Source: a virus. From it: DNA of 25,637 bases. Location of the stretch: IMG/VR virus record IMGVR_UViG_3300032118_002615, positions 1 to 25,637 of that record. One strand, given 5' to 3'. Positions 2,738 through 19,810 of the stretch are shown piece after piece (the first letter of the stretch is position 1; each line of letters begins with the position of its first letter). The notes beneath the pieces were generated by a model that was not told the DNA's origin, searched no databases, and was given only the letters and a program-made list of their open reading frames with translations. The position numbers were made by a program, and so were the translations under genes.

Positions 2738-2887
2738 ATGATTTTAGACACTTCCAAGGAACCGACCGAGCACATGCCGTTCTATGGCGTGGAGCGCGGC
2801 GTCCAGGGAAGGGGTCTAGTAGGGTTAGGTATGGTGGGGTCAGGTATGGTTTGGTGGGGTTGGGTCGGGTCCGGCGTGGTAAGATAA
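2738..2887 (+). CDS. Short ORF whose 3' half is made of the NNGGT repeat array (doubtful)
   Basis: ATG 2738 lies 1 nt after the preceding stop. The first about 21 codons (MILDTSKEPTEHMPFYGVERG) look like ordinary protein. From about 2811 the frame runs through the 5-bp repeat array and therefore encodes only Gly, Val, Trp and Met-rich low-complexity sequence, ending by chance at TAA 2885-2887. There is no clear SD. Either the array grew into, or replaced, the 3' end of an older gene, or the frame is fortuitous. I do not assign a function. Confidence 0.25.
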   Translation: MILDTSKEPTEHMPFYGVERGVQGRGLVGLGMVGSGMVWWGWVGSGVVR

Positions 2888-2920
2888 GGTCGGGTCAGGT
2901 CAGGTGAGGCAGGGTAAGGT
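2811..2920 (+). repeat. NNGGT pentanucleotide array, 22 units
   Basis: Twenty-two consecutive 5-bp units in which the last three bases are GGT in most cases (exceptions AGT, GGC, GAT) while the first two bases vary almost freely (GG, AG, TA, AT, CA, TT, TG, CG, GT, AA occur). Phase is kept without an indel over 110 bp. The array ends 21 nt before ATG 2942, leaving room for an SD. It is not a tandem repeat in the usual sense because no unit is copied faithfully; only the GGT phasing is conserved. Two units span about one helical turn. Related arrays lie at 3462-3541 and 6011-6035. Confidence 0.9.
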
Positions 2921-2941
2921 TTTAACCAAAAGGAGGATACA

Positions 2942-3463
2942 ATGGAAAAAATAAAAGTTAGGATTGAAGGTATTGTTCCGCTGTTGCAACATAGGTTTCC
3001 GATGGAAGATAATCCAGAGCAGAAATCAATAAAACGTAAAAAAGAATATCCCGCCAAAGAGGAATGCGAAAAAGCTCTTTATGCCGACGAGAAAGGCAAA
3101 ATCTATCAACCGGCGGAGCATATCCTGGGGGCATTGATAAAAGCCGGAACGAATTTTCTTTTTGAAAAAAAGAGAACTTATAGAGATGTTATTAAGTCTT
3201 CAGTTTTTATTACGCCCTCAATTATTTACCACGAATATCAAAAATGGGAAATAGACCGGAGGTCAGTCGTGATAATAAAGGCAAGAATTGTGAGGGCGCG
3301 CCCGCGGTTTGATAAATGGGCTCTTAGTTTTGCTGTTGAGTTTGACCAGGAGATAACGAATAAGGGAAAGATAAAAGAAATTCTTGACTTCGCAGGGCAG
3401 AGAATAGGTATAGGCGATTACCGGCCTCTATTCGGAAGATTTATTGTTACAGAGTTTAAATAA
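2942..3463 (+). CDS. Conserved-looking phage/mobile-element protein of unknown function (173 aa)
   Basis: ATG 2942 follows a strong SD (AGGAGG, about 6 nt spacing). The protein has no signal peptide or membrane segment. It begins with a beta-type segment (KIKVRIEGIVPLLQHRF), has a central block YQPAEHILGALIKAGTNF, then RARPRFDKWALSF, and ends with AGQRIGIGDYRPLFGRF and a short tail. I recall this pattern (PLLxHR near the start and GIGDYRPxFGRF at the end) from uncharacterised proteins of phages and integrated elements, but I cannot attach a tested function. Base composition is clearly more AT-rich than the sugar genes and head genes on either side. It is bracketed by the two NNGGT arrays, and the second array starts inside its own stop codon. 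That arrangement suggests a unit that moves with the repeats. Confidence 0.8.
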   Translation: MEKIKVRIEGIVPLLQHRFPMEDNPEQKSIKRKKEYPAKEECEKALYADEKGKIYQPAEHILGALIKAGTNFLFEKKRTYRDVIKSSVFITPSIIYHEYQKWEIDRRSVVIIKARIVRARPRFDKWALSFAVEFDQEITNKGKIKEILDFAGQRIGIGDYRPLFGRFIVTEFK

Positions 3464-3541
3464 GGTAGGGTACGGTTTGGTAAGGTCGGGTTAGGTGCGG
3501 TACGGTAAGGTAGAGTACGGTAAGGTAGGGTAGGGTAGGGT
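3462..3541 (+). repeat. NNGGT pentanucleotide array, 16 units
   Basis: Sixteen 5-bp units, 15 ending GGT and one ending AGT (AGAGT). The first unit, AAGGT, begins on the second base of the TAA stop of the preceding gene, so the array starts exactly where coding ends. Variation is lower than in the first array (AA, AG, AC predominate) and the last three units are identical AGGGT. It is followed by AATAA and a T-rich/A-rich leader, then the next start codon 30 nt downstream. Confidence 0.9.
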
Positions 3542-4037: not shown

Positions 4038-4496
4038 ATGGAAGAACCAAAAGTCAATGTTATAGATGTTAAGGATATAAAAAAAAGAGACCCGCGAGCT
4101 GACGTTATTCTGGAGAGCCTGCGAAAGGGAAGCAGTATCGCTAAGGCGTGCGAAGGCGCAGGAATACACGTGATGACCTTCTGGCGCTGGCGGCAGGAAG
4201 ATAAAGACCTGAATACTGAAACGGAAGTCGCCTTAACTGGCCGAGTGATGGTCGTTGAGGACTCACTATATAACGCATGCATCAAAGGTAATTCAACACT
4301 AATAATGTTTTTCCTTATGAACCGGGCCCCGGACACGTGGAAAGATAAGAGAGCGATGCCGCATTTAAGCGCGAGCGCATCGGCATCAGCGGAGGCAGCA
4401 AGTGTCAACCCTACAGCAGCAAGAAAAAGAATCGCAAGAAGTCTGCGCATTATCCGCGGACTTGGACTCGAGTCTGGCCTGTCTGGCCAGGACTGA
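4038..4496 (+). CDS. terS: Terminase small subunit (HTH DNA-binding)
   Basis: A 152-aa protein with a helix-turn-helix in its N-terminal third (about residues 20-55: ADVILESLRKGSSIAKAC, then HVMTFWRW). This is the layout of phage TerS proteins that bind the packaging site and recruit the large subunit. Immediate position before a clear TerL gene supports the role. The C-terminal about 45 residues are Ala/Ser-rich then Arg-rich, and the last 95 nt are shared in another frame with TerL. Start ATG 4038 lacks a strong SD and may depend on read-through from the ParB stump that ends 2 nt upstream. The assignment rests on HTH plus position rather than on a family-specific motif. Confidence 0.8.
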   Translation: MEEPKVNVIDVKDIKKRDPRADVILESLRKGSSIAKACEGAGIHVMTFWRWRQEDKDLNTETEVALTGRVMVVEDSLYNACIKGNSTLIMFFLMNRAPDTWKDKRAMPHLSASASASAEAASVNPTAARKRIARSLRIIRGLGLESGLSGQD

Positions 4497-5964
4497 GTCG
4501 GACGTCTTCGTCTCCTACGTCCTGAAGACCGAGAAAGGCGAGGCCATCTCCCAAGGTGCGATCCATCGCGAGATCCAGTGGCATATAGACGAGTGCCGCA
4601 GGCGTGGGGAGCACTACTGCGGGATTTTGGCACCCTGGGGCCATGGTAAGACCGAACAGGTAGCTATAGGCCGAACCCTCAATTTCCTGGGAGAGAACCG
4701 CAACCACCGCGTCTTCATAGTCTGCAACACCGACGACAACGCCAAGGCCCGCGTCCAGGCCATCCGCAATTATATCATGACCGATGCCGACTATCACAAG
4801 GTCTTTCCCGAAGTCAAGGAAGCGCAATCCGGGGACTGGAGTAAGCATAAGATAGTGGTCGAGCGCGAATCCATGTCCAAGGACGGCTCCGTCGAAGCCT
4901 GGGGGATAACAACCTCCGGCACCGGCAGCCGCTGCGACTTCATAATATTCGACGACCCGGTGGACCTCAGGAACGCCATACAGAACCCGGCCATGCGCCC
5001 GGTGGTGAAACAGTGCTTCAATAACGTCTGGATGAGCAGACTCGTGCCCGGGGGCTTCGCCATTTACATCGCGACTATCTGGCACCAGGACGACAATACC
5101 AATGAGTTGTTAAAGAACCCGCAATGGAAGTTCCTGGTGATGAAGATATCCGAGGATTTCTCCCGCATCGAGTGTAGCTCGCCTTTTAAGGGCGAATACA
5201 CGATACCCCTTTGGGAAGACACCTGGGACAAGGCGGACCTCCTGGACAGACTTAAGGTTATAGGCAATACGGCTTTTAACAGGGGTTTCAGGCAGCGAGC
5301 CATAAGCGACGAAGACAGGACCCTACCTTCGTATCTTAAAATCTTTAAGTACGGTCTGAGCCCTCTCGATGTGGTGCGCCGCGACTGGCCGCGGGTCGGC
5401 GGCATGGACCCCTTCGGCAAGTTCGTGGTCATCTTTACTTTGGCCGTGGATCCCGGGACCGGCAAGAGATACCCCTTGGAGATAAGGCGCGGCAAGTGGG
5501 GCCCGACCGAGTCGGTCAATCAGCTCATAGACGCGTACAACACGCACCGGCATCAGATCATCGTGGTCGAGAACAACGCCGCCCAGGATGCAATCGTGCA
5601 GTGGGCCCTGGAAAAAGGACACGCATCGATGCCTCTTCTTCCGTTTGCCACCGGCAAGCAAAAGGTGGATCCGATGCTGGGCCTGCCCGGCATGGAGGTC
5701 GAATTCGCCAACAACTCCTGGATTGTGGCCATGGGCAACGCGGAACATGAACCGGACTGCAAGTGCGGCTTCTGCGTCTGGAAGAGCGAGATGGGTTCGC
5801 ATCCGGTAGGGGAGGCATCCGACACGGTCATGGCTTCCTGGTTCGCCAGGGAGGCGGCCCGGGCGATAACCTTAGGGCTACAGCCGCAGGAAGACACCCT
5901 ACAAGAAGAGGTCGTCACGGCGGAAGAGGCGGGTTTGGAAACGGTCAAAATAGGCAATTATTAG
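4402..5964 (+). CDS. terL: Terminase large subunit (ATPase-nuclease)
   Basis: A 520-aa packaging motor. Walker A is in APWGHGKTE (Lys about 83) and Walker B in FIIFDDP (Asp184, Asp185). The C-terminal RNase H-like nuclease shows its usual acidic residues: Asp about 336 in GGMDPFG, Glu about 390 in VVENN and Asp about 474 in SDTVMASW. It translocates genomic DNA into the prohead and cuts it. The start chosen is GTG 4402, with GGAGG at 4391-4395 inside terS. This gives an unusually long 95-nt overlap; later candidate starts lack an SD and would trim the N-terminus close to conserved sequence. A Cys-rich loop (PDCKCGFCVW, about 452-461) sits in the nuclease domain and could hold a metal. Confidence 0.95.
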   Translation: MSTLQQQEKESQEVCALSADLDSSLACLARTESDVFVSYVLKTEKGEAISQGAIHREIQWHIDECRRRGEHYCGILAPWGHGKTEQVAIGRTLNFLGENRNHRVFIVCNTDDNAKARVQAIRNYIMTDADYHKVFPEVKEAQSGDWSKHKIVVERESMSKDGSVEAWGITTSGTGSRCDFIIFDDPVDLRNAIQNPAMRPVVKQCFNNVWMSRLVPGGFAIYIATIWHQDDNTNELLKNPQWKFLVMKISEDFSRIECSSPFKGEYTIPLWEDTWDKADLLDRLKVIGNTAFNRGFRQRAISDEDRTLPSYLKIFKYGLSPLDVVRRDWPRVGGMDPFGKFVVIFTLAVDPGTGKRYPLEIRRGKWGPTESVNQLIDAYNTHRHQIIVVENNAAQDAIVQWALEKGHASMPLLPFATGKQKVDPMLGLPGMEVEFANNSWIVAMGNAEHEPDCKCGFCVWKSEMGSHPVGEASDTVMASWFAREAARAITLGLQPQEDTLQEEVVTAEEAGLETVKIGNY

Positions 5965-5969
5965 GATAG

Positions 5970-6001
5970 ACTACAGTAGTACTACCTTACTACTACAGTA
6001 G
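5970..6001. repeat. Short direct repeat with internal palindrome
   Basis: ACTACAGTAG occurs at 5970-5979 and again at 5992-6001. Between and overlapping them lies the 10-bp perfect palindrome GTAGTACTAC (5976-5985). It is immediately before the AGAGT array in the terL-portal gap. Possible protein-binding site or part of a degenerate repeat cluster; function unknown. Confidence 0.6.
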
Positions 6002-6010
6002 CACTCACCC

Positions 6011-6040
6011 AGAGTAGAGTAGAGTAGAGTAGAGTAATAA
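6011..6040 (+). repeat. AGAGT pentanucleotide array (5 perfect units) plus AATAA
   Basis: Five identical AGAGT units (6011-6035) followed by AATAA. The unit AGAGT also occurs once as a variant inside the NNGGT array at 3462-3541, and that array too is followed by AATAA. I therefore treat it as the third, shorter and homogeneous member of the same array family. It lies in the leader of the portal gene, directly before a terminator-like hairpin. Confidence 0.85.
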
Positions 6041-18580: not shown

Positions 18581-19810
18581 GTGTATAAGATATTCCAGAT
18601 ATATATGATTTTAATTTTAACATTGTTTTGCAATCCTGTTCAGGCAGAGGTTAGGAATATTCAAGACAATTATAAGTTGATATATACCATTCTTGAAAGC
18701 GATGGCACTCCTGTAACCAGTCAAGAAGTTACGGTGAAGATACAAAGGGCTTCGAATAATCAATGGTTAGATTTTGATGATTTGGCATTTAAGGCATCCG
18801 GGTGGGGCAACAAAACAATTACCTTGAGTGAAGACACAGACGAAGATTTTTATTATTATATCTTTAATCCCCCAGCCGGCGAAACCACAGCCGAACAATA
18901 TGCTTTTCTGATTGAAAATTCCAATGCCACTTATAAAGACCATCAGATAGAATTGGTTAATTATCAAGTTATCGGAAGCGGCTCGGCGCCGAATGTCTAT
19001 GAAATCCTGGCAGAGATAGACGCTAACTCGACGAAACTGACGAATATCAATACAACTGTCACCGCTTTTAACGGAACTTGGGACTCGACTAAGGCCGGCT
19101 ATTTAGATATAGCCGTTTCAAGCCGGCTGCCTACGGCTAATATCACGTTGACTAACGGCAATGTAAGCGTAGGGACGAACTATGACAAGGCCGGTTACAA
19201 CCTCGTAGTTGCGGATTACCAGAATATCTCAAATATCACTTGGGCTAATGCCACGCGCACCTTAACCGCCGGCACGAATATCGCCCTGGCAAAAGGCACG
19301 GGCATAACCGGCTTCAACGATATCGCGGCAGCTGACGTCTGGGCCATAGCGACAAGGCAACTGACGGGGACCCAAGTCTTCAACCTTACTGGTAACATCA
19401 CCGGAAGCCTCAGCGGTTCAGTAGGCAGCCTGACGACCTGGGATAAGGCTAATTATACTTTAAGCGCCGCGGGCATTGATAGCATCTGGGATGAGGTACA
19501 GACCGGGCATACGACAGCAGCCTCATTTGGGCTTTATATTGATAGTAAGGTTTCAGAGGCCGGCGGCGGCGGCCTGACGGTCCAGGATATAGTCGACGGT
19601 GTATGGGATGAGGTACAGACCGGGCATACGACAGCAGCCTCATTTGGGCTTTATATTGATAGTAAGGTTTCAGAGGCCGGCGGCGGAGGTTTGACCGTTC
19701 AGGATATAGTCGACGGCGTGTGGGATGAGGTTTTAGCTAATCATACGACCACGAATACGACCGGTAAGAAATTAAGTGAGATGCCGACATTATACGATGT
19801 AGGGCCTTAA
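18581..19810 (+). CDS. Secreted repeat-containing fibre-like protein with Sec signal peptide
   Basis: Start GTG 18581 follows GGAGGAG. The first 23 residues (MYKIFQIYMILILTLFCNPV, ending QA before EV) form a signal peptide with cleavage at VQA|EV. Residues about 24-130 look like an Ig-type beta-sandwich. About 140-300 is Asn/Thr-rich linker, then a 39-residue unit (VWDEVQTGHTTAASFGLYID and following) repeats twice with a third partial copy. The protein has about 15 Asn-X-Ser/Thr sequons. The VWDExxxxHTTAxSFG unit is familiar from phage fibre and neck-adjacent proteins. Composition shifts from AT-rich to GC-rich near 18960, inside the gene, so its exported N-terminal part may be a recent acquisition. 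It precedes the adaptor gene by 11 nt. Confidence 0.7.
   Translation: MYKIFQIYMILILTLFCNPVQAEVRNIQDNYKLIYTILESDGTPVTSQEVTVKIQRASNNQWLDFDDLAFKASGWGNKTITLSEDTDEDFYYYIFNPPAGETTAEQYAFLIENSNATYKDHQIELVNYQVIGSGSAPNVYEILAEIDANSTKLTNINTTVTAFNGTWDSTKAGYLDIAVSSRLPTANITLTNGNVSVGTNYDKAGYNLVVADYQNISNITWANATRTLTAGTNIALAKGTGITGFNDIAAADVWAIATRQLTGTQVFNLTGNITGSLSGSVGSLTTWDKANYTLSAAGIDSIWDEVQTGHTTAASFGLYIDSKVSEAGGGGLTVQDIVDGVWDEVQTGHTTAASFGLYIDSKVSEAGGGGLTVQDIVDGVWDEVLANHTTTNTTGKKLSEMPTLYDVGP
19487..19723 (+). repeat. 117-bp in-frame tandem repeat
   Basis: Unit starts at 19487 and 19604, with a partial third at 19721. The first 83 bp of copies 1 and 2 are identical, and the remaining 34 bp differ at a few mostly silent positions. 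It encodes the 39-residue WDE...HTT...GGG unit of the fibre-like protein. Near identity of the 5' two thirds points to recent duplication or gene conversion. Confidence 0.92.

What the first reader, a model, noticed from the sequence alone, without database searches (positions are those of the whole stretch)
2811..2920. GGT-phased 5-bp array with free-running first two bases (NNGGT x22)
The sequence shows 22 units in perfect 5-bp register where GGT is nearly invariant and the preceding two bases take most possible values. A simple slippage repeat would show identical units; a protein-coding constraint would have period 3. The pattern therefore needs a mechanism that keeps GGT every 5 bp while randomising the rest: selection for a protein or RNA that reads GGT on one helical face (10 bp per two units), for regularly spaced G-runs (G-quadruplex or R-loop), for SD-like purine clusters in the mRNA leader, or targeted mutagenesis of the NN positions. 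I know of no named element with this rule. It lies in the leader of an unknown conserved-looking phage gene.
Basis: seen in the sequence. Interest (0 to 1): 0.8.

Follow-up and report, generated by a model that had tools for sequence, protein, structure and literature searches.

The report
Phage VIPR guide-RNA array (GGY/NN)
The odd five-letter repeat is a guide-RNA array of a VIPR system, a recently described CRISPR-related weapon that viruses of bacteria use against each other; the window carries the matching Vipr protein gene flanked by two such arrays.

Summary
Positions 2811-2920 hold 22 in-phase NNGGY units (18 GGT, 2 GGC, 1 AGT, 1 GAT); the best of 200 shuffles reached 7. A blind scan of viral contigs for the bare DNA pattern found 53 loci with free-running NN; 37 encode a homologue of that protein, against 2 of 67 low-complexity matches, and those 2 also hold GGY/NN arrays. 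Arrays lie on the protein's strand 178:2, are non-coding, and as RNA fold no better than shuffles. The protein matches SUSP1 Vipr (PDB 36pp, E=1.5e-11), and its AlphaFold model matches Cas7-family RAMPs (Z 11.6). This is a VIPR system (preprint PMC13142463, 2026): Vipr binds a vrRNA of alternating GGY/NN, and the NNs pair with DNA under a 1-nt skip code to repress rival elements. The window is a divergent member (at most 46% identical to any relative found) without a recognisable accessory gene or tail hairpin, and with one array longer than the published 9-16 repeats. Decoding found no target in viral contigs (parts of both arrays) or genome contigs (part of array 1). The mechanism is inferred from homology.

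The parts
2811..2920 (+). Array 1: vrRNA-type array, 22 NNGGY units. NN in order: GG CT AG TA AT GG CA AT TT GG TG CG CC GT AA AA CG CA CA GA AG AA
   Evidence: Sequence; shuffle statistics; 20/22 units are GGY
2931..2936 (+). Shine-Dalgarno AGGAGG of vipr, 10 nt after the end of array 1
   Evidence: Seen in sequence
2942..3463 (+). vipr gene, 173 aa, RAMP/Cas7-like protein (phrog_4652, unknown function)
   Evidence: phmmer hit to PDB 36pp 'SUSP1 Vipr protein' E=1.5e-11, profile E=2.2e-31; AlphaFold pLDDT 92; Foldseek/VIA top hits all Cas7-family; homologue next to 37 of 53 free-NN arrays
3462..3541 (+). Array 2: vrRNA-type array, 16 NNGGT units (unit 11 is AGT), starting in the vipr stop codon and followed by AATAATTTTTTTT. 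NN: AA AG AC TT AA CG TA GC AC AA AG AC AA AG AG AG, then AA

Best explanation
The array and its twin on the other side of the next gene are the guide-RNA (vrRNA) genes of a phage-encoded VIPR system, and ORF 2942-3463 is its Vipr protein. The arrays are transcribed on the vipr strand. Vipr subunits, Cas7-like RAMPs, bind the repeat RNA and hold the GGY. The exposed NN dinucleotides together pair with double-stranded DNA at sites reading NNxNNxNNx (one skipped base per unit), and the bound complex blocks transcription of a rival phage, satellite or prophage gene. GGY is fixed because the protein needs it; NN run free because they are the address. SHOWN HERE: the arrays, their non-random phase, strand and gene linkage across many viruses, the protein's homology to a solved Vipr and its RAMP fold. 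INFERRED from homology and PMC13142463: expression, complex formation, the 1-nt skip code, repression, and inter-phage warfare. NOT FOUND: the DNA target of these two arrays.
For: Pattern-only scan of viral contigs gave 53 loci with free-running NN, of which 37 encode the window protein's family, against 2/67 low-complexity loci (Fisher p=6e-16); both of those also have GGY/NN arrays. Arrays share the vipr strand 178:2. Solved-structure hit 'SUSP1 Vipr protein' E=1.5e-11 single sequence, 2.2e-31 profile. Model pLDDT 92.2; Foldseek top 50 all CRISPR effector (Cas7-type) entries; VIA Z 11.6 to Csm complex chain 6xn3_F over 155 residues. G152, G156, R161, G165 invariant in 29 members, in the G-loop region. 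GGC at two positions fits the published GGY rule. Control: SUSP2, a relative of SUSP1, has a Vipr homologue and two GGY/NN arrays upstream. L016 and L129 have near-identical Vipr and flanks but different NN series, as expected of guides. NN composition over 149 arrays fits codon positions 1-2 best of six phases, by 35 log units over the next, consistent with skipping the wobble base.
Against: No target found: six 8-unit stretches of the two arrays in viral contigs and one 9-unit stretch of array 1 in genome contigs gave only chance-level matches outside the query stretch, and there is no self-target in the window under skips 0-4 other than the arrays themselves. A local test of skip rules on 166 arrays against 2.2 Mb found no preferred skip. 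Array 1 has 22 units, outside the published 9-16. No 3' tail hairpin or vap gene was recognised at the window. The codon-phase signal is only suggestive: the within-locus shuffle was not significant for phase 1-2 (z=1.15), and neither window array shows it.
Confidence: 0.93

Rival explanations
1. TRAP-like (mtrB) regulation: a ring protein binds regularly spaced triplets (11 x (G/U)AG NN, also 5-nt period) in mRNA leaders and attenuates expression; NN are mere spacers.
For: Same 5-nt period and 2-nt free spacers (TRAP site rule from my own knowledge); arrays often sit in gene leaders (16 of 42 vipr loci have an array within 100 nt upstream); unit numbers cluster around 10-14.
Against: The linked protein is a Cas7-like RAMP; the triplet is GGY, not (G/U)AG; some phages carry up to 18 arrays in one block and near-identical loci differ in their NN, which spacers do not explain.
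Confidence: 0.02
2. Degenerate satellite: the arrays are decayed pentanucleotide microsatellites without function.
For: Pure pentamer microsatellites exist in the same scan, and the window has a perfect AGAGT x5 run at 6011-6036.
Against: NN columns vary freely while GGY is held, in dozens of diverged viruses; NN show no clear autocorrelation; strong linkage to one protein family and one strand.
Confidence: 0.02
3. Non-functional remnant of a VIPR system: the protein is intact but the arrays (22 units with two broken GGY; 16 units, A-rich, one broken) no longer make working vrRNAs.
For: No tail hairpin, no vap, no target found; GAT and AGT breaks; NN in array 2 are biased (12 of 16 begin with A).
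Against: vipr ORF is intact with a good SD and the invariant G-loop residues; broken units occur in many related arrays; the target search is limited to sampled genomes.
Confidence: 0.1

Closest known systems
VIPR (Viral Interference Programmable Repeat) system, Escherichia phage SUSP1 (PMC13142463; PDB 36pp)
   Same: Homologous Vipr RAMP (E=1.5e-11), arrays of GGY alternating with hypervariable NN, beside the gene and on its strand, in a virus
   Different: Vipr about 30% identical to the SUSP2 copy; in the tree the window falls in a poorly supported group with L050, L070, L054, L058 and L111, apart from SUSP2; array 1 has 22 units against 9-16; no tail hairpin or vap seen; array 1 ends 10 nt before the vipr SD and array 2 starts in its stop codon
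Class 1 CRISPR-Cas backbone (Cas7/Csm3)
   Same: RAMP/RRM fold with C-terminal Gly-rich loop (Z 11.6); by the preprint, guide bound with periodic unpaired bases
   Different: No CRISPR repeats, no other cas gene recognised nearby, 5-nt period with 3 fixed bases rather than contiguous spacers
TRAP (mtrB) RNA-binding site
   Same: 5-nt period with 2-nt free spacers in leaders
   Different: GGY rather than (G/U)AG, different protein fold, NN are specific to each array

Membership tests
VIPR | Vipr protein: small single-RRM RAMP homologous to SUSP1 Vipr | tested here: met
   36pp 'SUSP1 Vipr protein' E=1.5e-11 / 2.2e-31; Cas7-family fold
VIPR | ncRNA array of alternating GGY/NN with hypervariable NN | tested here: met
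   20/22 and 15/16 units GGY; NN entropy 1.75-1.93 bits in array 1, 1.19-1.81 in array 2; related arrays non-coding
VIPR | Array next to vipr, in a viral genome (same strand in relatives) | tested here: met
   178:2 strand rule across relatives
VIPR | 9-16 repeats per vrRNA | tested here: inconclusive
   Array 2 has 16, array 1 has 22; 35 of 180 arrays at vipr loci exceed 16 by the same count, but RNA ends are unknown
VIPR | Invariable structured 3' tail after the repeats | tested here: inconclusive
   No structured tail seen at the window; hairpins follow arrays in L058 and L111
VIPR | vipr-accessory protein (vap), typical but not universal | tested here: inconclusive
   Neighbouring small ORFs (50 and 76 aa) match no Pfam family; the 76-aa ORF also matches no PHROG, PADLOC or NCBIfam model; vap sequences of the preprint were not available
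VIPR | DNA target matched by NN with a 1-nt skip | tested here: inconclusive
   No target found in viral contigs (parts of both arrays) or genome contigs (part of array 1); hosts and rivals may be unsampled
VIPR | vrRNA expressed and bound by Vipr; silences its target | not testable with these tools
   Needs RNA and protein experiments
TRAP (mtrB) site | (G/U)AG triplets 2-3 nt apart | tested here: not met
   Triplet is GGY in both arrays
CRISPR-Cas | Identical repeats with contiguous spacers, plus cas gene set | tested here: not met
   No such repeats found by TRF; no cas family among the ten ORFs scanned around the array

The most novel reading that the evidence does not exclude
In this sub-group the guide array is also a cis-acting leader: a 22-unit, tail-less array ends 10 nt before the vipr Shine-Dalgarno, so free Vipr coating it could block its own translation until enough guide RNA is made. 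Guide production and protein dosage would then be coupled in one transcript, a form of VIPR not described in the main text of the preprint.
Probability: 0.15. Interest if true: 0.55.

Novelty: new member of a known kind. Interest (0 to 1): 0.45.

Why it matters
VIPR is a 2026 discovery: RNA-guided DNA recognition by a noncontiguous code, proposed to precede CRISPR. Here the array-protein link was found from raw sequence before the match to VIPR was made, which independently supports it in uncultivated viruses (39 loci brought in by the DNA pattern alone, and a near-strict one-strand rule) along with the GGY/NN rule. The window adds a divergent member without recognisable vap or tail and with a long array in the gene leader, and its NN series can be decoded as more rival or host sequences appear.

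Tried and rejected
Coding repeat: rejected, stops in all six frames of five related arrays. Decayed satellite: rejected on column entropies and lack of autocorrelation. TRAP ring: considered on the 5-nt period, dropped when the linked protein proved a RAMP. Stable RNA structure: the window arrays fold no better than shuffles (z -0.42 and 0.84). Single-protein and profile searches for Vipr relatives by back-translated peptides failed. Target search under the 1-nt skip rule: viral contigs scanned with array 1 units 1-8, 4-11, 12-19, 15-22 and array 2 units 3-10 and 7-14, genome contigs with array 1 units 11-19; only chance-level extension. Skip-rule test on 166 arrays against the 2.2 Mb held locally: no signal. 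Rfam: no match in window or 11 related loci. Tail hairpins of L058/L111: MAFFT placed no gaps, so pairs could not be counted properly. Type I-VII assignment: not possible, supplement not readable here.

Full report
Observation. The array is as described and somewhat better: 22 units in register, with two of the 'exceptions' being GGC, so the rule is GGY. In the whole window the best 22-unit run in 200 dinucleotide shuffles had 7 hits against 20 observed; NN columns carry 1.75-1.93 bits of entropy, GGY columns 0.27-0.44. A second array of 16 units starts in the stop codon of ORF 2942-3463. Both are on the + strand, on either side of that ORF. The window is a 25,637-base virus record with terminase, portal, head protease and capsid genes.

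What it is linked to. I scanned viral contigs for the bare pattern (GGTNN)6GGT. The 120 stretches fall into simple repeats and arrays with free-running NN. Of 53 loci of the second kind, 37 encode a homologue of the window's 173-aa protein; of 67 of the first kind only 2 do (Fisher p=6e-16), and those 2 also carry GGY/NN arrays that my GGT-based filter had missed. The window protein alone finds some twenty of them by phmmer at E 1.5e-10 or better, so the link does not depend on the profile. At vipr loci, 178 arrays lie on the vipr strand and 2 on the other (both in L065), which points to RNA rather than DNA as the working form. Five related arrays have stops in all six frames, and the two window arrays have no more predicted RNA structure than shuffles.

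Architecture in relatives. Some loci have long blocks of arrays separated by a constant joint (AAGGCTAATG in L016 and L129, AAGGAATGGTTTAATGAATTTAAT in L022, GGGCAGTT in L076), up to 18 arrays in L076. L016 and L129 have near-identical Vipr proteins, the same flanks and the same hairpin at the end, but different NN series: the constant parts look like the machine, the NN parts like the content. In L058 and L111 the arrays end in hairpins whose stems differ between copies yet stay mostly paired (ACTGCC/GGCAG, ACTACC/GGTAG, ACTCCC/GGGAG, ACTGTC/GACAG; read by eye).

Protein. AlphaFold on 29 relatives gives pLDDT 92.2. Foldseek against the PDB lists only CRISPR effector entries in its top 50 (Csm, type VII, Cmr, Cas7-11); VIA-align gives Z 11.6 to a Csm chain over 155 residues. 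By sequence the only significant solved relative is 36pp, 'SUSP1 Vipr protein' (E=1.5e-11; profile 2.2e-31). The invariant residues G152, G156, R161, G165 lie in the Gly-rich loop region typical of RAMPs.

Known system. The preprint PMC13142463 (read) describes VIPR: a Vipr RAMP plus vrRNAs of 9-16 GGY/NN repeats and a 3' tail, whose NN pair with double-stranded DNA with one skipped base per unit; bound complexes repress transcription and are aimed at rival phages and satellites. Before finding it I had inferred a RAMP-like protein tied to the arrays and NN as variable content, which agrees. It is filed as a member: homologous protein, RAMP fold, GGY/NN arrays, gene linkage and viral location were tested and met.

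How it most likely works here. Shown: arrays, phase rule, linkage, fold. Inferred: arrays transcribed with vipr, bound by Vipr subunits along the repeats, NN pairing to DNA as NNxNNx, repression of a competitor's gene. Composition of 1511 NN from 149 arrays fits first-and-second codon positions best among six codon phases, by 35 log units over the next, which agrees with the reported skipping of the wobble base; I treat it as suggestive only, as the within-locus shuffle is not significant and the window's own arrays do not show it.

What was not found. Stretches of both arrays decoded with a 1-nt skip have no convincing target in viral contigs, nor does one stretch of array 1 in genome contigs. 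The exact-match scans demand 8-9 perfect consecutive units, and the virus has no near relative among 50,697 phage records at the DNA level, so its rivals are probably unsampled. No vap or tail hairpin was recognised at the window.

What is particular to the window. The Vipr is at most 46% identical to any relative found, and groups, with weak support (81/86), with L050, L070, L054, L058 and L111, apart from SUSP2. Array 1 has 22 units, against the published 9-16; by my count 35 of 180 arrays at vipr loci exceed 16, some perhaps two arrays in phase. Array 1 ends 10 nt before the vipr Shine-Dalgarno; in 16 of 42 vipr loci an array lies within 100 nt upstream of the (roughly placed) start. That allows, without showing, a leader role in controlling Vipr itself.

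Verdict. A real and striking feature, correctly noticed, but a new member of a kind described in 2026.

Noticed in passing
window 6011-6036 (and 5970-6005): Perfect AGAGT x5 run, preceded by ACTAC/GTAGT repeats, between the terminase and portal genes; ends AGAGTAATAATAAAA, like the end of array 2 (AGGGTAATAATTTT). It is not GGY/NN and has no variation; meaning unknown.
   Followed up: partly
L016 4602-5047 and L129 6114-6496: Two viruses with near-identical Vipr, joints and end hairpin but different NN series and 7 versus 6 arrays: a natural pair for studying how guides turn over.
   Followed up: partly
L045, L128, L082, L052: Very long GGY/NN runs (58 and 71 units in L045; 40 and 31 in L128; 30 and 42 in L082; 31 and 31 in L052), perhaps the overlapping 'staggered' arrays of the preprint.
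   Followed up: no
L058 3120-3475 and L111 2970-3305: Hairpins after each array whose stems change on both sides between copies (G-C, A-T, C-G in the same place), a likely vrRNA tail for this sub-group.
   Followed up: partly
L120 6421-6933, L076 4419-4928, L025 2622-3119, L011 3257-3742 and others: A second gene family of about 165 aa near the arrays in 7 loci; L120's begins MMIIGIDPGMKGA, which looks RuvC-like by eye, but two members match no Pfam family. Candidate vap.
   Followed up: partly
window 4402-5964, L050, L054, L070, L102: In several relatives, as in the window, vipr lies close upstream of a gene that is, or clusters with, a terminase large subunit; a favoured niche perhaps.
   Followed up: no
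window 19487-19731: 117-bp tandem repeat (2.1 copies, 94% matches) inside ORF 18581-19810, a repeated segment of the protein.
   Followed up: no
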